The notes beneath the pieces were generated by a model. It was given only the letters and a program-made list of their open reading frames with translations. It was not told the origin of the DNA and searched no databases. A DNA stretch of 64,000 bases from assembly GCF_006443095.1 (NCBI RefSeq), contig NZ_VFWZ01000002.1, forward strand, positions 806,001 to 870,000, given 5' to 3'. How positions within the stretch are numbered: the first letter of the stretch is position 1; the number at the start of each line of letters is the position of its first letter. Positions 33,614-57,962 of this stretch are shown piece after piece. The position numbers and the translations under genes are program-made. Origin of the DNA: Aquimarina algicola. GTDB lineage: Bacteria; Bacteroidota; Bacteroidia; Flavobacteriales; Flavobacteriaceae.

Positions 33614-34579
33614 TCATTTAATCATGCATACAGAGTTGATATTACCCTGAAAGTCATATTCTTTGACAGGGTTATCAGGATCAACGATCCAATTGCCATC
33701 TACAATAAATTTATAATGGTGCTTACCTCCTGAAAGCGTAGTTGTATAACGCCATCCTGTTTTAGTTTTGGTCATTCTATACTGGTCTTCTGACCAATGA
33801 TTAAATGATCCTGAAAGAATTACTTTTCTAGCCTCTAAATAGCCGTTTAATATAAATTCTTTGGATGCCCTTATATCAATTACAGAATTGTGCCCAAAAA
33901 ATTCATTGTCTACCTTCCTGGGATTGTCAGGATCTATAATCCATTTTCCATCTACAATAAATTTATATTCGTACTCCCCGGGTTTGATACGTAACTTCAA
34001 TTCCCAGCAATCATTTGTTTTATTCATTTTAAATGAATGCTCGTCCCATTTATTAAAGCTTCCGCTAAGTATTACTTTTTTTGCATTTTTATATCCATTG
34101 AGTGTGAAGGTCACATTACCATTACCATCGGGATAAGCCGTATACATTTTTAAGTTATATGTTTCTAACCTAAAACCATTTTTTTTAGCTCTTGTAATAT
34201 TTTCATCATTCCATGAAGGTTCTGCCCAATAGGAATTGTTAATTACAAACTTAAACTCCCAGGAAAACGCATCGGTAAAATCACTTAATTTTTTTCTCAA
34301 CTCGAATCGATTTTCATCAATTCTTCTCATTTTCCACTTTTTCTTAGACCAATTATTAAATTCTCCTGCAACTACCACATTTTCTATATCAAGGTCTTCA
34401 AAATCAAAGGTTCTACCCCTTCCATCAGAGGTAGCTTTCTGATATTCTCTTTTATCAAAAACAAATACTAAATCTTCTCCTTCTATTTTATATCCTTTAA
34501 AAGGAATGGTTTGGGCATAAGAGGAAAACCCGGCAATAGCCAGAATAAAATAAATATGGTATACTATAATTTGCTTCAC
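33614..34579 (-). CDS. Secreted protein with three AMPK/CBM48-like glycogen-binding domains
   Basis: The 321-residue protein has a signal peptide (FAGFSSYAQ-like end, residues about 1-22). Three tandem domains of the CBM48/AMPK-beta glycogen-binding type carry VVAGEFNNWSKK, VILSGSFNKWDEH and VILSGSFNHWSED, each followed by YEYKFIVDG(K/N)WI(I/V)DPDNP in repeats two and three. These domains bind alpha-glucans; no catalytic domain is present. The start codon is GTG at 34577-34579, overlapping by one base the TAG stop of the upstream aspartyl-protease gene. The two are therefore translationally coupled. Export to periplasm or surface is inferred from the signal peptide. Confidence 0.8.
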   Translation of the reverse strand: MKQIIVYHIYFILAIAGFSSYAQTIPFKGYKIEGEDLVFVFDKREYQKATSDGRGRTFDFEDLDIENVVVAGEFNNWSKKKWKMRRIDENRFELRKKLSDFTDAFSWEFKFVINNSYWAEPSWNDENITRAKKNGFRLETYNLKMYTAYPDGNGNVTFTLNGYKNAKKVILSGSFNKWDEHSFKMNKTNDCWELKLRIKPGEYEYKFIVDGKWIIDPDNPRKVDNEFFGHNSVIDIRASKEFILNGYLEARKVILSGSFNHWSEDQYRMTKTKTGWRYTTTLSGGKHHYKFIVDGNWIVDPDNPVKEYDFQGNINSVCMIK

Positions 34580-35565
34580 TATCGTATTATAGGAGAACTT
34601 ACAAAGTAAAGCTTTTCTTTTTGATAATTGATAATTGTTCTTTTTTGTTGAAAAAATTCATATCCCAAAACACCATCAAGATCAGTCCCAAAAGCTTCAT
34701 TCATTTTGTTCAAATTAGTAAGTACTGTATTCATTGGTCCAAAATAAACCGTTTTACTTAACTTAACTTTAAACAATTTTCCTGCCATAACTTCAATCTT
34801 GTTGTCACTGGCTCCTGATAATAGTAATCTTCTTTTAGGATAAAAATGTTTTAATGCTTTTTTTCCTATTCTTTTATTGATTTGATTAAACTCTGCCGCA
34901 CTATCTAAACCAAATCTCACTTTTTGATCTCCGACAAAACCATCAAGAACGATAGTATGGTTTTTTAGATTAAAATGTATACTATCTGTAATGGTTTCTG
35001 CATATACATTAGGATTCAGTTTATCTCCTTTTCGGTTGACTTTGCTAAGTGTTATTTGATTAAGGTGCATATCAACAAAAACCTCATAATCCTTCAATAT
35101 ATTATATCCAATAATACCTAGTAAATGTATTTTTTTTGCTTTTTCGATATGTGATAGATTAACGACATCAGAAGTTTTATTCTTCAAATTAAAATTCTGT
35201 AATACAAAATCTTGTATTTTTTGCTCAAAAGTGTCATCAATGACTTCTAGAACGCCTGAAGATTTCTTTTTTCTGGAGATAAAAGGATTTTTTACGGGAA
35301 AATGCATTTCGTTCAGTAATAGCGTCTCAGAACCTGTGTCTATAATAAAATTTCCTTTTTTATTAAGTAGTTCTGCCTCTACTACAATAAGCCTATCAAC
35401 AAGCTTAAAAGGGATTCTTGCTGTATATTCATTTAATATTTCTGCCTTAGAAAATACAAGTTCTCCTCTTGGAGAAAAAAACTTAGGCACGTTTTCATCC
35501 GCTATAGCATATTGACTACAGATCAAATAAAAAACCATGCCTAATAGAATCTTGCGCATACCCAT
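34579..35565 (-). CDS. Secreted retropepsin-like aspartyl protease
   Basis: The 328-residue protein begins with a signal peptide (ILLGMVFYLICSQYAIA). It contains two aspartyl-protease half motifs: IIDTGSETLLLN at about residues 115-126 and FGLDSAAEFNQI about 100 residues later. The first has the full DTGS. The second has DSA in place of DTG, a weakened site. An HLLGIIGYNILKD flap-like segment and GVLGYEFFQQKR near the end are typical of flavobacterial retropepsin-like proteins. Substrates are unknown. It is coupled by a 1-bp overlap to the glucan-binding protein gene, which suggests joint action in the envelope. Confidence 0.75.
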   Translation of the reverse strand: MGMRKILLGMVFYLICSQYAIADENVPKFFSPRGELVFSKAEILNEYTARIPFKLVDRLIVVEAELLNKKGNFIIDTGSETLLLNEMHFPVKNPFISRKKKSSGVLEVIDDTFEQKIQDFVLQNFNLKNKTSDVVNLSHIEKAKKIHLLGIIGYNILKDYEVFVDMHLNQITLSKVNRKGDKLNPNVYAETITDSIHFNLKNHTIVLDGFVGDQKVRFGLDSAAEFNQINKRIGKKALKHFYPKRRLLLSGASDNKIEVMAGKLFKVKLSKTVYFGPMNTVLTNLNKMNEAFGTDLDGVLGYEFFQQKRTIINYQKEKLYFVSSPIIR

Positions 35566-35679
35566 AAGACAAAAACACTATTGATTTGTTACACTTTTTT
35601 AAAACTTTATTTTATCAATAAAATCACCAAGCAAAACTCGTAACCTATTTCTAGTCAAAACAATACTGATATAGTAATC

Positions 35680-51222: not shown

Positions 51223-53619
51223 ATGACGGAATCTACATGCTTCCATTGTGGAAACGATTGCGGTACAACGACTATCAATTTTGATAACAAAACATTCTGT
51301 TGCAATGGGTGCAAAACTGTATATGAGATTTTTTCGACTAATGATCTATCCTGTTATTATGATCTTCAATCATCTCCTGGAGCCGTTCCTGAAGAAATTA
51401 AAGGAAAGTACGATTATCTCGATACTCCTTCTATTGCTGAAAAACTGATTGAGTTTGATGATGGGAATACACAAATAACCACCTTGTATATTCCTCATAT
51501 TCATTGTAGTTCTTGCATTTGGGTTTTAGAAAACCTCAACAAGCTCCAATCTGCGATCACGGTATCACAAGTTAATTTTCCTAAAAAGAATGTACGTATT
51601 ACATATCACTCTGATCGAATCTCTCTTAAAGAAATAGTGCTTTTACTGGGAACAATTGGATACGAACCTTATATCAGCTTAAATGACTATTCTTCTAGTC
51701 AGAAACAAATAAACAGAAGCTTGATTTACAAATTAGGCATTGCAGGATTCGCATTCGGAAATGTCATGTTTTTATCATTCCCCGAGTATTTTGAAGTTTC
51801 AGAGTATTGGTTAGAAAAATATAAGCATGTCTTTAGATGGTTAATGTTTGCTTTTTCTCTCCCTGTAGTATTTTATGCTGCACAAGATTACTTTATTTCT
51901 GCTTACAAAGGGTTACGTTCTAAAATCTTAAACATAGATGTACCTATAGCTTTAGGAATTTTAGTATTATTTTTACGAAGCACTGCAGAAATCATTTTTG
52001 ACTGGGGTACCGGCTTTTTTGATAGTCTTACAGGTCTGGTCTTTTTTCTACTTTTAGGAAAATTCTTTCAACAAAAAACATATTCTTTCCTATCCTTTGA
52101 GCGAGATTACAAATCTTATTTTCCTATTGCAGTAACAAGGATTAACAATGCCGATGAATCAAATGAACAAAAAGAAGAAACCGTACAAATCTATGACATA
52201 AAAAAGGGAGATCGTATTCTGATCAGAAACAAAGAGCTTATTCCTGTAGATTGCATTTTGATCAATGGTAATGCAGAGATCGATTATAGTTTTGTTACGG
52301 GAGAGAGTGAATCTGTTACCAAACAATCTGGAGATAAACTTTTTGCCGGAGGAAGACAATTGCACAATGCAATAGAGGTAGAAGTCATAAAATCCGTAGA
52401 GCAAAGTTATCTCACACAATTATGGAGTAATGATGTGTTCAAAAGAGATAAATCCGCTTCATTTACTAATCTCACAGATACAATCAGTAAATACTTTACG
52501 ATAGCCATTCTATGCGTTGCAGTAATCGCTACTACATATTGGTTATTTGCAGATATCTCGAAAGCCATGCAAGTATTTACCGCAGTACTCATTATAGCCT
52601 GCCCATGTGCACTCGCATTGGCAAGACCCTTTGCATTAGGTAATATGCTACGCATTTTTGGGAAAAATAAATTTTATATCAAAAATGCCGATGTGATAGA
52701 GAGGCTTGCTTCTATAGATACTATGATTTTTGACAAAACCGGTACCATCACTACTAATACTGGAAGCGAAATAAAGTATGAAGGAATGGTCCTCACAACA
52801 GAAGAAGAATCTTTATTAAAAAATACTTTGAGAGCCTCTAGTCATCCCCTTAGCCGAGCATTATATGATGTATTGGCAGAACATGATATTCTAACACTAG
52901 ATGAGTACCAAGAGTCTATTGGTAAAGGGATCGAAGCAAAATCAATGGATAATAGTATAAAAATAGGATCTTCTATTTTTGTCGGAAATACAGATCCATT
53001 ACAAACACAAAATACCGCTGTACATATCAGCACCAATAATCAATATAAAGGGCATTACATTTTCTGTAATAAATATAGAAATGGAATACAAAAAGTATTT
53101 GATCAACTATCAAGAAACTACCAACTTGCTATACTATCAGGTGATAATGAAGGAGAGAAGAAAAATCTTGAATCCTTATTACCAAAAGGAACAGCTTTAT
53201 CATTTCATCAAAAACCTGATGATAAGCTAAAATATATTCAATCCATACAAGAGCAACAAAAAAAGGTGATCATGCTGGGTGATGGCCTTAATGATGCCGG
53301 AGCATTAGCGCAGAGTGACGTAGGGATTGCTATTTCAGAAAACGTAAATGTTTTTTCTCCTGCTTGTGATGCAATTCTAGACGCTTCGCAGTTTGAAATG
53401 ATTCCTGACTTTTTAAAAATTTCTAAAAGGACTATCAAAATTATAAAATCTAGTTTTATCCTTTCCTTTTTATATAACATTATAGGACTATACTTTGCCG
53501 TAACCGGTCAGCTTTCTCCAATCGTAGCTGCCATATTAATGCCGTTAAGTTCTATTTCTATCGTTGCATTTGTGACCATTTTGACGAACTGGCATGGTAA
53601 TAAAATTAGAGAGAAATAA
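51223..53619 (+). CDS. ccoI: Copper-translocating P-type ATPase CcoI/FixI
   Basis: This 798-residue inner-membrane P1B ATPase is needed for copper supply to cbb3 oxidase. Features in order: an N-terminal metal-binding Cys cluster (CFHCGNDC, then CCNGC); a heavy-metal-associated domain with HCSSCIW; about eight membrane segments; the TGES phosphatase motif (VTGESESV); the ion-site Cys460-Pro-Cys462; phosphorylated Asp504 in DKTGT; an HP motif (SSHPLSRA); and GDGLNDAGAL. All catalytic residues are present. It is separated from the cco operon by pdxH-like, DUF2892 and micropeptide genes but shares the same palindrome with ccoS. Confidence 0.95.
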   Translation: MTESTCFHCGNDCGTTTINFDNKTFCCNGCKTVYEIFSTNDLSCYYDLQSSPGAVPEEIKGKYDYLDTPSIAEKLIEFDDGNTQITTLYIPHIHCSSCIWVLENLNKLQSAITVSQVNFPKKNVRITYHSDRISLKEIVLLLGTIGYEPYISLNDYSSSQKQINRSLIYKLGIAGFAFGNVMFLSFPEYFEVSEYWLEKYKHVFRWLMFAFSLPVVFYAAQDYFISAYKGLRSKILNIDVPIALGILVLFLRSTAEIIFDWGTGFFDSLTGLVFFLLLGKFFQQKTYSFLSFERDYKSYFPIAVTRINNADESNEQKEETVQIYDIKKGDRILIRNKELIPVDCILINGNAEIDYSFVTGESESVTKQSGDKLFAGGRQLHNAIEVEVIKSVEQSYLTQLWSNDVFKRDKSASFTNLTDTISKYFTIAILCVAVIATTYWLFADISKAMQVFTAVLIIACPCALALARPFALGNMLRIFGKNKFYIKNADVIERLASIDTMIFDKTGTITTNTGSEIKYEGMVLTTEEESLLKNTLRASSHPLSRALYDVLAEHDILTLDEYQESIGKGIEAKSMDNSIKIGSSIFVGNTDPLQTQNTAVHISTNNQYKGHYIFCNKYRNGIQKVFDQLSRNYQLAILSGDNEGEKKNLESLLPKGTALSFHQKPDDKLKYIQSIQEQQKKVIMLGDGLNDAGALAQSDVGIAISENVNVFSPACDAILDASQFEMIPDFLKISKRTIKIIKSSFILSFLYNIIGLYFAVTGQLSPIVAAILMPLSSISIVAFVTILTNWHGNKIREK

Positions 53620-53622
53620 ATA

Positions 53623-54228
53623 ATGAGTCTTGCAGAAGAACATAATCCGATACAGCATTTTCAAAAATGGTTTTTCGAAGTAGAAAAGTCTTATCCCGAA
53701 GATGAAGTAAACATCATGTTATTATCTACAATAGGTACAGATGGATTTCCCAAAAGTCGAATTGTTTTGTTAAAGCGTTTTACCTGGGAGGGCTTCACGT
53801 TTTTTACTAATTACAATAGTGAAAAAGGAATAGCAATCACGAATAACAATAAAGTATCACTCTCTTTTAACTGGTCAAAAGCCAAAAAAAGAGTACACAT
53901 AAGTGGTTATGCAGAAAAAATATCTAAAAACCTGTCTGAAGGATATTTTGATTCTCGCCCCAGAGGAAGTAAATTGAGTGCTTGGGCATCTAACCAAAGT
54001 AAAGTTGTTACTTCGAGGAAAAAGCTTGAAGAACAATTGTTGTTTTACCAAGAAAAATTCAGTAATAAAATTATAATTCCTAAACCTCAGTATTGGGGAG
54101 GATATATTGTAAAGCCTATTGAAATAGAGTTTATCGAGGCTCAAAACCACAATCGTAATCAATCTATAACATACAAGTTATTATCTAATTACGAATGGTC
54201 GAAAGACATCAGACATTTTGCCGTCTAA
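53623..54228 (+). CDS. Pyridoxamine 5'-phosphate oxidase family protein (PdxH-like), divergent C-terminus
   Basis: The 201-residue protein has the PdxH fold and FMN-binding features: SKSRIVLLKRFTWEGFTFFTNYNSEKG (seen over 47-75, with PKSR in place of PSxR), SLSFNWSKAKKRVHISG, FDSRPRGSKLSAWASNQS and PQYWGGYIVKP. True PdxH ends with an FWQ-x-R-x-RLHDR segment and a terminal RLxP. Here the matching parts read FIEAQNHNRNQS and DIRHFAV, so the PLP-contacting residues are lost or changed. It may be a weak or altered oxidase, or a flavoprotein with another role. It starts 3 bp after ccoI and should share its transcript. Confidence 0.8.
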   Translation: MSLAEEHNPIQHFQKWFFEVEKSYPEDEVNIMLLSTIGTDGFPKSRIVLLKRFTWEGFTFFTNYNSEKGIAITNNNKVSLSFNWSKAKKRVHISGYAEKISKNLSEGYFDSRPRGSKLSAWASNQSKVVTSRKKLEEQLLFYQEKFSNKIIIPKPQYWGGYIVKPIEIEFIEAQNHNRNQSITYKLLSNYEWSKDIRHFAV

Positions 54229-54434
54229 TTTTTGAGTTTACAAGTACTTAGTCCCAAAATTTGATATAATGGACACCAACCTACAAACCCAGTGATAATC
54301 AAAATACCTGATACAGTTAGCAAAGCTACTCCCAAAGTATCAGAGATGTAGTGGTTATAAAATAAATATGCTAATATAAATCCTATACATATCCTGATTA
54401 CGACATCAATTCTTCCTAAGTTTTTTCTCATCAC
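54225..54434 (-). CDS. DUF2892/YgaP-type membrane protein
   Basis: This 69-residue protein has the DUF2892 pattern: MRKNLGRIDVVIRICIGFILA, two membrane segments, then FVGWCPLYQILGLSTC with two conserved Cys. In YgaP the same segment follows a rhodanese domain. The stand-alone form occurs near sulfur-handling genes. The role is unknown, possibly linked to sulfide or cyanide stress. It is convergent with the PdxH-like gene, overlapping by 4 bp. A perfect palindrome ATGATATATATCAT lies upstream at 54557-54570. Confidence 0.8.
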   Translation of the reverse strand: MMRKNLGRIDVVIRICIGFILAYLFYNHYISDTLGVALLTVSGILIITGFVGWCPLYQILGLSTCKLKN

Positions 54435-54526
54435 AAAATGATTTTAAGGATTTCACAATTAATTTTACTCAATCATCGAGATGTAAACGCCTCATGAACA
54501 TTATCTATCTGAGGTATTTCACTTTA

Positions 54527-54570
54527 TAAAAGTCATAATGAATTACAAGATTTCATATGATATATATCAT
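54527..54570 (-). promoter_or_regulatory. Crp/Fnr-like box and weak promoter for the DUF2892 gene
   Basis: The perfect palindrome ATGATATATATCAT at 54557-54570 fits ATGAY-N4-RTCAT. The matching minus-strand -7 position (54527-54534) reads GACTTTTA, which differs from TAnnTTTR at one base. Spacing is 22 bp. Confidence 0.5.
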
Positions 54571-54600
54571 ATTTGATCAGCTTAGGATATAAATTCAATA

Positions 54601-54637
54601 TAAAAATTAAGGCCAAACTTTGTACAAAATTTGGCCT
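54601..54637 (-). terminator. Intrinsic terminator closing the micropeptide array
   Basis: AGGCCAAA (54610-54617) pairs perfectly with TTTGGCCT (54630-54637). Read on the minus strand, the hairpin is followed by TAATTTTTA. It lies 23 bp past the stop of the last micropeptide (54661) and so defines the end of a minus-strand transcript. Confidence 0.85.
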
Positions 54638-54660
54638 CTTAGGTTATTATTAAAATTGCT

Positions 54661-54795
54661 CTAATATGCGTAGCGTTTGATTCTTGCAAACAAAATATCT
54701 TCATAATTGTAAAGACTTGGTGCGCAATTCAAAAACATGTTTTGTTTTTGTGCCGCAGTTTTTAATCGTTTTCTTGTATTTCTTAGCGTTTTCAT
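54661..54795 (-). CDS. 44-residue micropeptide, divergent member of the array
   Basis: ATG at 54795 opens 44 codons ending in TAG. The peptide starts MKTLRNTRKRLKTAAQ and ends ILFARIKRYAY. The MxTLxN start and a basic KR-aromatic end echo the four 28-residue peptides that precede it on the same strand. The middle, with one Cys (FLNCAPSLYNYED), is unique. It lies 32 bp after the previous stop and just before the terminator. Net charge is strongly positive. No known family comes to mind. Confidence 0.5.
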   Translation of the reverse strand: MKTLRNTRKRLKTAAQKQNMFLNCAPSLYNYEDILFARIKRYAY

Positions 54796-54827
54796 GGTGA
54801 TTAGTATTTTTAGGTTATAAATTAAAG

Positions 54828-54914
54828 TTATCTAAAACGTCTTTTTCCGTTCCATATATGACTTTTGGTTCCTTGTGCTCTGTTTGTAATTTGATTGTTG
54901 TCTAATGTTCTCAT
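54828..54914 (-). CDS. 28-residue micropeptide A of a tandem family
   Basis: Fourth of four homologous 28-codon frames in transcription order. It begins MRTLDNNQIT and ends IWNGKRRFR. Positions shared by all four copies are T3, N7, Q8, I9, T16, K17, W21, N22, K24, R25, R26 and R28, with Tyr/Phe at 27. Compared with copy D it uses CGT for an AGA arginine and AAC for AAT, both synonymous, which supports translation. An A-rich leader precedes the ATG. No signal peptide or membrane segment is present. Function unknown. Confidence 0.6.
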   Translation of the reverse strand: MRTLDNNQITNRAQGTKSHIWNGKRRFR

Positions 54915-54965
54915 GATTTTTTGTTTTTTAAAATGAATGATATAATTTTAATACTTAATTTTTTA

Positions 54966-55052
54966 CTATCTGTAACGTCTTTTAGCGTTCCATGTATACC
55001 CTTTTGTTCCAGTTAATTTTTGAGTAATTTGATTGTTGTCTAACGTTCTCAT
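54966..55052 (-). CDS. 28-residue micropeptide B of a tandem family
   Basis: Third copy in transcription order. It begins MRTLDNNQIT, as in A, has GTKGY in the middle, and ends TWNAKRRYR. It differs from D by synonymous ACG/ACA, ATT/ATC, GGG/GGA and TAT/TAC changes as well as amino acid changes at variable positions. It stops with TAG, while the other three use TAA. The gap to copy A is 51 bp and to copy C 47 bp. Confidence 0.62.
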   Translation of the reverse strand: MRTLDNNQITQKLTGTKGYTWNAKRRYR

Positions 55053-55099
55053 ACTATTTGTTTTTTAATTGATAAATGATTATAATTTTTTTGTGATTC

Positions 55100-55186
55100 T
55101 TATCTATATCTTCTTTTAGAATTCCATAGATGTGTTTTGGTATTTGTTAATTTGTTCGCTATTTGATTGTGAATTGATGTGTTCAT
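55100..55186 (-). CDS. 28-residue micropeptide C of a tandem family
   Basis: Second copy, the most divergent of the four. It begins MNTSIHNQIA, keeps NKLTNTK, and ends LWNSKRRYR. Despite the changed N-terminus, all columns in the list given for A hold (T3, NQI, TK, WN, KRR-Y-R), which argues for selection on the peptide. It uses ACC/ACA and TAT/TAC synonymous variants. Confidence 0.6.
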   Translation of the reverse strand: MNTSIHNQIANKLTNTKTHLWNSKRRYR

Positions 55187-55228
55187 GATTGTTACTTTTT
55201 GATTAATGAATATTTGATTATTGAATTG

Positions 55229-55315
55229 TTATCTGTATCTTCTTTTAGAATTCCAAACGTATCCTTTTGTAGCTTCTAATTTGTTTGTGATTTGATTGCT
55301 GTCTAATGTTCTCAT
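55229..55315 (-). CDS. 28-residue micropeptide D, first of the tandem family
   Basis: First in transcription order. It begins MRTLDSNQIT, then NKLEATKGY, and ends VWNSKRRYR. Net charge is about +5. A possible promoter lies upstream on the minus strand, with TTG at 55361-55363, a 19-bp spacer and TATAAATC at 55334-55341. That -7 is a poor match to TAnnTTTG. The start-to-start distances D-C-B-A are 129, 134 and 138 bp. Confidence 0.62.
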   Translation of the reverse strand: MRTLDSNQITNKLEATKGYVWNSKRRYR

Positions 55316-55493
55316 AATACTTATTTTTAATTTGATTTATACCTACTAGACATCAGAAATCAAATTTTGTTACAGTACTATGCATAAAAAGGTACTACTT
55401 TAACATTTAATTCACATTTTAAGCCCTAAAATGCTCTCAAAACAGTATTGTTTTAGAAATTACCCAACTATATCAGTAAAGAATCGACAAAAC

Positions 55494-55537
55494 ATGACAA
55501 AAGTCATTTTCTAAGATAACATTCACACATAATTTTG
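55494..55537 (+). promoter_or_regulatory. Crp/Fnr-like box and promoter for the cbb3 oxidase operon
   Basis: The perfect palindrome ATGACAAAAGTCAT at 55494-55507 is followed after 22 bp by the perfect -7 element TAATTTTG at 55530-55537. Transcription would start a few bases downstream, leaving a leader of under 25 nt before the ccoS ATG at 55559, with AAGGAAAG as a purine-rich ribosome site. Confidence 0.75.
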
Positions 55538-55558
55538 GGGCATAAACGTAAGGAAAGT

Positions 55559-55753
55559 ATGGGTGCTATCTATGTATTATTAACTATAAGCATTATTGTC
55601 GCTATTGTCTTTTTTGTGGCCTTTATTATTTCTGTCAAAAATGGTCAGTATGACGATGTGTACACTCCTTCTGTTCGAATGCTTTTTGATGATGAACTTA
55701 TAACAGAGAGCGAAGAACAATCACCATTATCAAATAAAACTAAAGAATCTTAA
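55559..55753 (+). CDS. ccoS: cbb3 oxidase maturation protein CcoS
   Basis: The 64-residue protein has one membrane segment ([20 protein letters not shown]) and a short acidic tail with [15 protein letters not shown]. This matches CcoS, which is needed for cofactor insertion into cbb3 oxidase. A frame extends upstream to 55535, but that would start inside the -7 element, so ATG 55559 is chosen. It is the first gene of the operon, 1 bp before ccoNO. Confidence 0.9.
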
Positions 55754-55754
55754 T

Positions 55755-57962
55755 ATGGAAATGGAACAATTTTATTATGACAACAAAATTGTAAAAAAAT
55801 TCTTGTACGCTACTATATTTTGGGGCGTTATAGGGATGTCAGTAGGTTTGCTACTGGCATTTATGTTTTTGTTCCCTAATCTTACAGATGGTATCTCCTG
55901 GTTAAGTTTTGGTCGATTAAGACCATTGCATACCAATGCTGTTATTTTTGCCTTTGTGGGTAATGCCATTTTTGCAGGGGTTTACTATTCTACACAACGT
56001 CTGCTCAAAACCCGTATGTTTAGTGATGCGCTAAGTAACATCAACTTTTGGGGTTGGCAATTAATCATTTTGGGAGCAGCAATCACATTACCTTTAGGAT
56101 ATACAACATCAAAAGAATATGCAGAATTAGAATGGCCTATTGATATTGCAATTGCGGTAATCTGGGTAACTTTTGGGTGGAACTTAATAGGTACTATGCT
56201 TAGAAGAAGGCAACGTCACCTATATGTTGCCATTTGGTTCTACATTGCCACAGTAGTTACAGTAGCTGTTTTACATATTTTTAATAGTTTAGAATTACCT
56301 GTTAGTGCTTTAAAAAGTTATTCTGTATATGCAGGAGTTCAAGATGCACTAGTACAATGGTGGTATGGTCATAATGCCGTTGCATTCTTTTTGACAACTC
56401 CGTTTCTAGGATTAATGTATTATTTTATTCCGAAAGCAGCAAATAGGCCTGTGTACTCATATAGATTGTCTATTGTGCATTTCTGGTCTTTGATATTTAT
56501 ATATATATGGGCAGGACCTCACCATTTATTATATTCAGCTTTACCAGACTGGGCACAGAATCTTGGTGTAGCTTTTTCTGTAATGCTAATTGCTCCATCA
56601 TGGGGTGGTATGATCAACGGTTTGTTAACATTGCGAGGGGCTTGGGATAAAGTACGTACTGACCCTGTATTAAAATTCATGGTAGTAGCCATTACAGGAT
56701 ATGGTATGGCAACTTTTGAAGGCCCTATGTTATCTCTTAAAAATGTAAATGCAATTGCACACTTTAGTGATTGGGTTATTGCCCATGTTCATGTAGGAGC
56801 ATTAGCATGGAATGGATTCTTGACCTTTGGGATGGCATACTGGTTAATTCCTAAACTCGCCAAAACAAAATTATGGTCTACAGCATTGGCAAATGTTCAC
56901 TTTTGGGTAGGTACACTGGGTATCGTTATGTATGCATTACCAATGTATGTTGCCGGTTTTGTACAAGCTTCTATGTGGAAGCAATTTAATCCTGATGGAA
57001 GCCTGGTTTATGGTAACTTCTTAGAAACCGTAAACGAGATCATACCCATGTATTGGATGAGAGCTATTGGAGGAAGTTTATATATCCTCGGTATTTTTAT
57101 TATGGTTTACAATGTCGTAAAAACTGTAAGACAAGGAAGTACAATTACAGACGAATTAGCAGAAGCGGCTCCATTGACAAAGGTAACCAGATTCAGAACT
57201 GCAAAAGAGACTTATCATACTTGGTTAGAAAGAAGACCTGTTAGATTAACCATATTTTCTACCATTGCAATTCTCATTGGAGGAGCGGTACAAATTATAC
57301 CTACTATAATGGTAGAATCAAATATCCCTACCATCTCTAGTGTAAAACCTTATACTCCCCTAGAGCTTGAAGGTAGAGACATCTATATCCGAGAAAGCTG
57401 TGTATCATGTCACTCACAGATGATTCGACCATTTAGAAGTGAGGTAGAACGTTATGGCGAGTATTCTAAAGCAGGAGAATATGTTTATGACCATCCATTC
57501 TTATGGGGTAGTAAACGTACTGGACCTGATCTGTTTCGTGTTGGTGGTAAATACTCTGACAACTGGCACTTAAACCATTTCTATGATCCACAAACCACAT
57601 CTTCGGGCTCTATAATGCCAAGTTATAAATGGCTAATTAAAAATGAGCTTGACAGATCAGATACTGAAAAGAAAATGGAAGCGATGGTATCTCTAGGAGT
57701 ACCCTATACAACAGAAGAAATCGCAAAAGCCCAGCAGTGGATGGATGAACAAGCAACACAAATAGAAAAAAACTTGTATAGCGATCCTGATTTTGCAAAA
57801 ACCTATGAAGCTGACAAAAAATATGCAAAAGAAAATGGGTTGGAGTTTGTAGAAATGAGAAATCGAGAAGTTGTAGCACTCATCGCGTACATACAACGAT
57901 TAGGAACCGACATAAAAGTGACTAATAAAGATGGTGAAGTTGTTCAAACCGAAAGCAAATAA
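55755..57962 (+). CDS. ccoNO: cbb3-type cytochrome c oxidase, fused subunits CcoN-CcoO
   Basis: The 735-residue fusion holds the catalytic subunit and the monohaem cytochrome c subunit. The CcoN part (about 1-470) has some twelve membrane helices and haem/copper ligands in [30 protein letters not shown] and [11 protein letters not shown]. After a linker and one further helix (about 495-515), the CcoO part carries the haem c site [12 protein letters not shown] and a Met-containing [10 protein letters not shown] ligand region. The enzyme reduces oxygen with high affinity and pumps protons. The N-O fusion is usual in Bacteroidota. Confidence 0.96.

What the first reader, a model, noticed from the sequence alone, without database searches (positions are those of the whole stretch)
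54661..55315. Tandem array of four homologous 28-residue micropeptides plus a 44-residue relative beside the cbb3 operon
Seen directly: four minus-strand frames of exactly 29 codons (55229-55315, 55100-55186, 54966-55052, 54828-54914), spaced 129-138 bp start to start. Invariant residues are T3, N7, Q8, I9, T16, K17, W21, N22, K24, R25, R26 and R28, with Tyr/Phe at 27. Several codons differ only synonymously (ACA/ACG, ATC/ATT, AAT/AAC, TAC/TAT, AGA/CGT), as expected for translated, selected genes. A 44-codon frame with a similar start (MxTLxN) and basic aromatic end follows. The unit ends at a perfect hairpin terminator. Inference: a co-transcribed family of cationic small proteins, made in several variants, not signal-bearing. 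They could bind nucleic acid or ribosomes, act as regulators, or be secreted bacteriocin-like peptides. I do not know any described family with the WN-x-KRR-Y-R end.
Basis: partly seen in the sequence, partly recalled or inferred. Interest (0 to 1): 0.92.

Follow-up and report, generated by a model that had tools for sequence, protein, structure and literature searches.

The report
Stress-linked micropeptide arrays in marine bacteria
Marine flavobacteria carry rows of nearly identical 28-residue positively charged proteins, unknown to the databases searched, whose shared control region also carries the DNA mark found at a membrane-stress regulator, so they look like a new class of stress proteins.

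Summary
In detail: four 28-codon minus-strand ORFs and a 44-codon ORF at the stated coordinates, ending at a hairpin terminator. They are real genes: a profile finds them in 43 of 66 genomes of the genus (Aquimarina, inferred) and 16 of 44 other genomes of the family, but in 0 of 78 outside it; dN/dS is 0.26 over 258 distinct genes. Pfam, NCBIfam, PHROGs, PADLOC and PDB sequences give no credible match.

It is nearly invariant: AGTACCTTTTTATRCATAGTACT abutting TGTAAC-N16-CGTCTA, an ECF-sigma-type promoter. The same palindrome lies ahead of a PadR gene in 31 of 31 loci scanned; in this genome that is a PadR-PspC-Toastrack envelope-stress operon, and the palindrome has exactly two error-free sites, that operon and this array. 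Elsewhere the same promoter precedes 37-mers and 31-mers of other sequence with similar basic-aromatic ends.

Best reading: envelope-stress-induced cationic microproteins in dosage arrays, gated by PadR. PadR binding, the sigma factor and what the peptides bind are inferred, not shown. The cbb3 neighbourhood is incidental.

The parts
55397..55410 (-). conserved A/T-rich GTTAA block upstream of the operator
   Evidence: conserved in the profile of 109 distinct promoter sites; sequence read
55375..55396 (-). palindromic operator AGTACCTTTTTATGCATAGTAC, same type as ahead of the PadR operon
55369..55374 (-). -35 element TGTAAC of an ECF-sigma-type promoter, abutting the operator
55347..55352 (-). 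-10 element TGTCTA (consensus CGTCTA), 16 nt after TGTAAC
   Evidence: spacer of 16 in 104 of 109 sites
55229..55315 (-). micropeptide 1, 28 aa, MRTLDSNQITNKLEATKGYVWNSKRRYR
55100..55186 (-). micropeptide 2, 28 aa (weakest E-value of the four)
54966..55052 (-). micropeptide 3, 28 aa
54828..54914 (-). micropeptide 4, 28 aa
54661..54795 (-). last gene of the unit, 44 aa, a separate conserved basic family ending KRYAY/KRYAH
   Evidence: 29 distinct 44-codon CDS of this profile, dN/dS 0.28
54609..54638 (-). hairpin terminator of the unit

Best explanation
The array is an envelope-stress operon of cationic cytoplasmic microproteins. Shown: translated genes under purifying selection, in tandem, with one near-invariant promoter made of an ECF-sigma-type -35/-10 pair and, abutting the -35, a palindrome shared with the promoter of the PadR operon (PadR-PspC-Toastrack in this genome). 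Inferred: PadR binds this palindrome at both places; when the PspC/Toastrack membrane protein senses envelope stress, PadR changes state and the array is fired by an ECF sigma factor. Inferred with less certainty: several copies give a high dose of a peptide of fixed length whose conserved N-terminus (MRTLxNNQI) and C-terminus (WNxKRR[YF]R) dock on one specific anionic partner, most likely a protein of the same stress pathway (about 0.35), otherwise RNA or the ribosome (0.25) or membrane lipid headgroups (0.2).
For: Gene status: 43 of 66 genus genomes, own one included, and 16 of 44 other family genomes at E<=1e-5; 0 of 78 outside the family; 172 ORFs in 56 stretches; dN/dS 0.21-0.28 for the 28-, 37- and 44-mers; 493 of 516 shifted-frame readings of the 28-mer genes meet a stop. 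Promoter, counted on arrays found by their peptides and not by the promoter: of 56 arrays two are cut by contig ends; 51 of the other 54 have operator end, -35 and -10 together (missing L037, L045, L061). Operator: 31 of 31 PadR loci score 19.4-32.6 with the matrix from 109 promoter sites; 200 mononucleotide shuffles have mean -3.5 and maximum 18.8; all 31 have TAnnTTTG within 38 bp downstream. Own genome: two exact operator sites, array and PadR operon, none with one mismatch (pattern designed from these two classes). In 31 genomes of my choice (25 with arrays, 6 without) 54 exact operator sites against 1 for the backwards control: 22 at PadR operons, 26 at arrays, 6 elsewhere (my classification from positions); 4 of those 6 precede genes that start like OMP_b-brl_3/TonB-receptor proteins (two of the four scanned with Pfam), three of them with an ECF-type promoter too. 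Operon content in the own genome: DUF4870, PadR, a PspC/LiaI-LiaF-TM/Toastrack protein, two DUF2807 proteins, a layout that PMC11237479 (section on HAAS-PadR systems read) proposes as a membrane-stress module.
Against: No binding or expression data. The operator could belong to another factor that acts at both promoters. PadR occurs also in genomes without a strong array match (G041, G066, G067, G072, G075, G076). L061 is an array with -35 and -10 but no operator, and L045, a second array of its genome, has neither in the 250 bp examined. The HAAS domain scores below its Pfam cut-off (22.6 against 27). The PspC/Toastrack content was checked in the own genome only. Of 40 sigma-domain matches 30 loci were fetched; two ECF genes among them (L356, L374) have a similar promoter ahead, four loci could not be read, and the background rate of the pattern was not obtained because the script stopped, so the sigma factor is not identified. 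Structure models of the 44- and 37-mers are low-confidence helices (pTM 0.30 and 0.27); the 28-mer was too short for the tool.
Confidence: 0.6

Rival explanations
1. RNA- or ribosome-binding stress peptides: the array makes a high dose of small basic proteins that bind rRNA or mRNA and tune translation under stress; the control logic is the same.
For: 433 distinct peptides of all types have a mean K+R-D-E count of 6.1; invariant W and R residues over 157 distinct 28-codon genes; several copies per array in 50 of 56 arrays.
Against: No match to any RNA-binding or ribosomal family; charge alone is not evidence of RNA binding.
Confidence: 0.25
2. Membrane-active or exported peptides (bacteriocin-like, modulin-like): the cationic aromatic ends act on own or foreign membranes.
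For: Cationic with W/Y/F; an array of short peptides plus a 44-mer recalls phenol-soluble modulin operons (recalled, no call).
Against: Very hydrophilic (GRAVY -1.37 to -1.55 for the four 28-mers), no signal peptide by eye, one sequence conserved across genera rather than diversifying (dN/dS 0.26). Neighbours were not annotated systematically; an ExbD-like gene recurs in other genera, so a transport link is not excluded.
Confidence: 0.1
3. Regulatory ORFs: ribosome stalling at the conserved basic C-terminus next to the stop codon is the function, either as a leader for downstream genes or as a trap for ribosomes.
For: Position 23 apart, the last eight residues before the stop are the best conserved stretch of the 28-mers; the 37- and 44-mers also end in basic-aromatic residues.
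Against: A terminator closes the window's unit and neighbouring genes vary between genomes, so no attenuated gene is apparent; the N-terminus is conserved too.
Confidence: 0.1
4. The palindrome is bound by some other regulator, and the link to the PadR-PspC envelope response is indirect.
For: No binding shown; PadR autoregulation is assumed from the position of the site ahead of its operon.
Against: 48 of 54 exact sites in 31 genomes are PadR operons or arrays; PadR itself is present in 30 of 30 genomes searched.
Confidence: 0.2

Closest known systems
HAAS-PadR / PspC / Toastrack envelope-stress modules (PMC11237479; section 28 and ten passages read)
   Same: The genome has such an operon and its promoter carries the array's operator.
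   Different: The parts read mention no micropeptide target; here an array of microproteins, elsewhere on the chromosome, is the second exact operator site.
Flavobacterial ECF promoters (motif SM6 of Flavobacterium psychrophilum, PMC9723704, passages read)
   Same: [quoted passage not shown]
   Different: Here a TGTAAC-N16-CGTCTA pair abutting a palindromic operator; the SM6 genes named in the passages are T9SS, Band-7 and other genes, not micropeptides.
DUF1127 small arginine-rich proteins (PMC12501420, abstract and section list seen)
   Same: Short, with several paralogues in one genome; reported to act through protein-protein contact with PhoR.
   Different: No sequence match and no shared motif seen.
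PadR repressors of Listeria (PMC6624303, abstract and section list seen)
   Same: [quoted passage not shown] two of them mainly regulate their own operons.
   Different: The targets named there are an efflux pump gene and trans-membrane proteins, not microprotein arrays.
Phenol-soluble modulin operons (recalled only)
   Same: Tandem short peptides in one operon, also with 44-residue members.
   Different: Modulins are amphipathic exported surfactants; these are hydrophilic and cationic.

Membership tests
ECF-sigma-dependent operon | two conserved blocks at fixed spacing, AAC-type -35 and CGTC-type -10 | tested here: met
   spacer 16 in 104 of 109 sites, 17 in 2, no -10 match in 3; weakly conserved spacer
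ECF-sigma-dependent operon | a cognate ECF factor that recognises it | tested here: inconclusive
   L356 and L374 have similar promoters ahead of ECF genes; no direct link, no background rate
PadR-PspC regulon | same operator as the PadR operon's own promoter | tested here: met
   31 of 31 PadR loci; two exact sites in the own genome; 48 of 54 sites in 31 genomes
PadR-PspC regulon | PadR binds and controls the promoter | not testable with these tools
   needs EMSA, ChIP or a padR mutant
HAAS-PadR module (the regulator's operon) | PadR next to a HAAS-PspC-LiaI-LiaF-TM-Toastrack protein | tested here: inconclusive
   [quoted passage not shown] HAAS 22.6 bits, below the cut-off of 27 (own genome only)
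DUF1127 | match to the Pfam/NCBIfam models | tested here: not met
   no DUF1127 hit for the 28-, 37-, 40- or 44-mers
28-mer family as one homologous family | common profile, fixed length, invariant W21 N22 R25 R26 | tested here: met
   162 of 172 profile hits are exactly 28 codons; W21 N22 R25 R26 in all 157 distinct ones
44-mer as homologue of the 28-mers | profile-profile similarity along the chain | tested here: not met
   hhalign probability 7.9%, only the C-terminal motif aligned; 37-mers 3.3%. An iterated 44-mer profile did pick up 28-mers at E<=1e-3, which I take for drift
phage or plasmid cargo, anti-phage system | presence in phage/plasmid records or defence families | tested here: not met
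   no match of the first 28-mer in phages or plasmids, no PHROGs or PADLOC hit
Structured RNA family | Rfam match over the gathering score | tested here: not met
   window 53500-56000: five matches, all far below gathering scores, E 2.9 or worse

The most novel reading that the evidence does not exclude
A promoter-defined class of stress microproteins: across marine Flavobacteriaceae one near-invariant ECF/PadR-type promoter drives dosage arrays of tiny basic proteins (28-, 31-, 37- and 44-mers) that are barely related in sequence but share a basic-aromatic end, making them the main effector output of the Bacteroidota PadR-PspC envelope-stress response.
Probability: 0.45. Interest if true: 0.85.

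Novelty: categorically new. Interest (0 to 1): 0.76.

Why it matters
The PadR-PspC-Toastrack module is proposed as an envelope-stress system in many bacteria, but PMC11237479 itself says (abstract) that such components are not well characterised outside proteobacteria. Two exact operator sites in a 5.9-Mb genome point straight at an output that can be tested: an array of very short proteins of a kind that gene callers can easily overlook. If right, it opens a new family of very small conserved bacterial proteins, gives a handle on envelope stress in marine Flavobacteriaceae, and offers a case where copy number of a 28-residue protein seems to be under selection.

Tried and rejected
Rfam for a structured RNA: nothing. 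Pfam, NCBIfam, PHROGs, PADLOC and PDB sequence: no credible match (the one Pfam hit for the 44-mer, PutA_1st at 14.9 bits, is under its cut-off of 27; the one PDB hit has E 0.57). Phages and plasmids: no match. A link to cbb3 oxidase: context varies. A wider regulon by the -35/-10 alone: TGTAAC-N16-BGTCTW has 11 places in the own genome against 3 for the backwards control, mixed functions, no clear theme. The 13-mer ATAGTACTGTAAC with up to two mismatches is near background (296 matches against 268 for the control), but its exact form occurs once. A repeat of ATAGTAC 17 bp apart as a direct-repeat site was considered and dropped because the palindrome of the PadR operon explains the block better. 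Structure prediction: uninformative. Literature: ten searches, five of them with no paper; no listing seen describes this array or promoter. Only an open-licence library was searched; the sORFdb paper (PMC11796252) was searched for three terms without a hit, the database itself was not. My first scan of PadR loci used contig orientation and missed the ten loci on the minus strand; one search corrects it. on the sigma genes had orientation and script errors; one gave the usable table.

Full report
What is there. The window lies in a 5.89-Mb genome. The genus is Aquimarina by inference: contigs of same-genus handles have the lengths of named Aquimarina records (G043:C6 and NZ_KE387187.1 of A. 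latercula, both 347,064 bp; G030:C1 and NZ_JACA01000001.1 of A. macrocephali, both 658,289 bp). The 28-mers are hydrophilic and basic (net charge +4.5 to +5.7 at pH 7, pI 10.5-12.0, GRAVY -1.37 to -1.55).

They are genes. A profile of the four (A2) was run over 188 genomes. Counting the listing at E<=1e-5, 43 of 66 genus genomes (own genome included) and 16 of 44 other family genomes match, 55 of these 59 below 1e-9; of 78 genomes outside the family none is below 0.07. Not every matching place was fetched: 55 stretches plus the window gave 172 family ORFs. Copies per array: 1 in 6, 2 in 20, 3 in 8, 4 in 15, 5 in 6 and 6 in 1 (some are cut by contig ends and two arrays are split over contigs), median start-to-start spacing 141 bp. 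Of the 172 ORFs 162 have exactly 28 codons; the ten others were left out of the next count. Over the 157 distinct 28-codon genes W21, N22, R25 and R26 are invariant, K24 is kept in 154 and position 27 is Y or F in all. Pooled pairwise dN/dS is 0.21 for these and 0.34 for the window's four, and 0.26, 0.24 and 0.28 for wider sets of 28-, 37- and 44-mers (258, 103 and 29 distinct genes). In shifted frames 493 of 516 readings of the 28-mer genes meet a stop; the readable rest gives 1.03 (21 sequences, +2) and 0.82 (2 sequences, +1).

The promoter. The DNA ahead of the first gene (output cut in the middle) shows a block of about 65 bp that hardly varies. Of the 56 arrays two are cut by contig ends; of the other 54, 51 have CATAGTACYGTAAC followed by a [CTG]GTC[TA] -10. 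L037 has the box but an altered -10, L061 has -35 and -10 without the box, L045 has neither. Over 109 distinct promoter sites (nearly all ahead of arrays, two ahead of the acidic protein below; three chance sites were left out) the spacer from TGTAAC to the -10 is 16 nt in 104, 17 in 2 and unmatched in 3. That is the shape of an ECF-sigma promoter; a flavobacterial ECF motif with a conserved CGT box is described in PMC9723704 (passages read).

The promoter defines a wider class. CATAGTACYGTAAC occurs in 108 of 299 family genomes, in 90 of 236 genera (126 places against 20 for the backwards control, my count from the listing). After removal of duplicates 174 distinct sites were examined: 130 are followed by ORFs that match the iterated 28-mer profile and 31 more by 37-mers. 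Of the 13 left, three precede other micropeptide arrays (L158, L270, L306), four precede a 187-188-aa protein with acidic repeats and a signal-like start (L169 twice, L253, L304), two are cut by the stored end (L260, L289), one is unclear (L251) and three lack a -10 at the expected place and look like chance (L150, L179, L182). The iterated profiles drift: the 44-mer profile also picked up 28-mers and the 28-mer profile picked up 17 ORFs of the 40-mer type, so these labels are rough. Profile-profile comparison does not show the 28-, 37- and 44-mers to be homologous (7.9% and 3.3%); they share a basic-aromatic end.

The operator. The block upstream of the -35 is a palindrome, AGTAC-N12-AGTACT. 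From memory I suspected a PadR site, and tested it. PF03551 has one match over its cut-off in the own genome and one below; a close homologue of that PadR is in 30 of 30 genomes searched (genomes chosen by me). With the array-derived matrix the best site in the 1.6 kb up to the start of PadR lies ahead of a TAnnTTTG sigma-A element in 31 of 31 loci, scores 19.4-32.6 against a mean of -3.5 and a maximum of 18.8 in 200 mononucleotide shuffles. [quoted passage not shown] The operon content was not checked in the other genomes.

A narrow regulon. In the own genome GTACYWTKNWWTRCATARTAC has two exact matches, the array and the PadR operon, none with one mismatch, and at two mismatches five places (one is the PadR site read backwards) against six for the control (the pattern was designed from these two classes). 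In 31 genomes TACYWTKNWWNRCATARTAC gives 54 exact sites against 1 backwards control: 22 PadR operons, 26 arrays, 6 others by my classification. Four of the six precede genes that start like OMP_b-brl_3/TonB-receptor-type proteins (L425-L428; L427 and L428 scanned with Pfam); L425-L427 have an ECF-type promoter with the palindrome between it and the gene. L424 and L429 have no clear target gene. So the ECF promoter and this operator recur together.

Context. A ccoN homologue was found in 17 of 56 stretches and 3 of 150 other loci; ExbD in 5 and 36; a sterol-desaturase-like gene in 10 and 1; the window's PNPOx neighbour in 8 and 3 (many of the 150 are only about 3 kb, so these are lower bounds). 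The promoter and peptides are conserved while the place is not, so the neighbours do not explain the function.

How it may work. Shown: coding, selection, one unit, the promoter anatomy, the shared operator. Inferred: PadR is the binder, the signal is envelope stress, an ECF factor drives transcription. In its own operon the site sits just upstream of the sigma-A -7 box, where PadR would repress; in three OMP genes it lies between promoter and gene; in the arrays it abuts the -35, where it could block or assist. What the peptide binds is open. Fixed length, conservation of both ends and a variable middle argue for docking on a specific partner rather than loose membrane binding; small DUF1127 proteins are reported to act by binding the kinase PhoR (PMC12501420, abstract). 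A lead only: in Zobellia a PadR-type gene, ZGAL_1768, is strongly up-regulated on all six algal polysaccharides tested (PMC5613140, passages read); whether it is this PadR was not tested.

Limits. No expression or binding data. dN/dS is a pooled pairwise estimate with many synonymous changes per site. Genomes were sampled, and only part of the matching places was fetched (55 stretches; 40; 6). The claim of novelty rests on the libraries and the ten paper searches named in Tried and rejected.

Noticed in passing
L169 (two copies), L253, L304: The same operator plus ECF promoter precedes a 187-188-aa protein with a signal-like N-terminus and acidic repeats (DLDWSTIELIEIEEEVELGFDTSKYLPENFNALKG type); one copy scanned, no Pfam match over cut-off.
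   Followed up: partly
L425, L426, L427, L428: The PadR-type operator also lies ahead of OMP_b-brl_3/TonB-receptor-like genes, in three of them together with an ECF-type promoter.
   Followed up: partly
arrays beside ccoN, e.g. L034, L084, L086, L087: The first copy is one peptide type (MRTLDNNQITKKL...), later copies a second type (MRTIDSNRITRKL...), often identical to each other within a genome, as if by concerted evolution.
   Followed up: no
loci of other genera, e.g. L138, L153, L192, L202: An ExbD/TolR-like gene follows the array on the same strand; ExbD hits in 36 of the 150 loci outside the first set.
   Followed up: no
window 35566-35593 minus: ECF-like TGTAAC-N16-TTGTCTT sequence directly against the start of a gene with a weak aspartyl-protease match (34579-35565); may be chance.
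   Followed up: no
intergenic gaps of the arrays and of the PadR operon (L204): Recurring CATCAATCAAAAA-like sequence ahead of start codons, perhaps a flavobacterial translation signal; not counted.
   Followed up: no
L356 and L374: Two ECF sigma genes of the own genome carry the same promoter type ahead of them, candidates for the array's sigma factor.
   Followed up: partly
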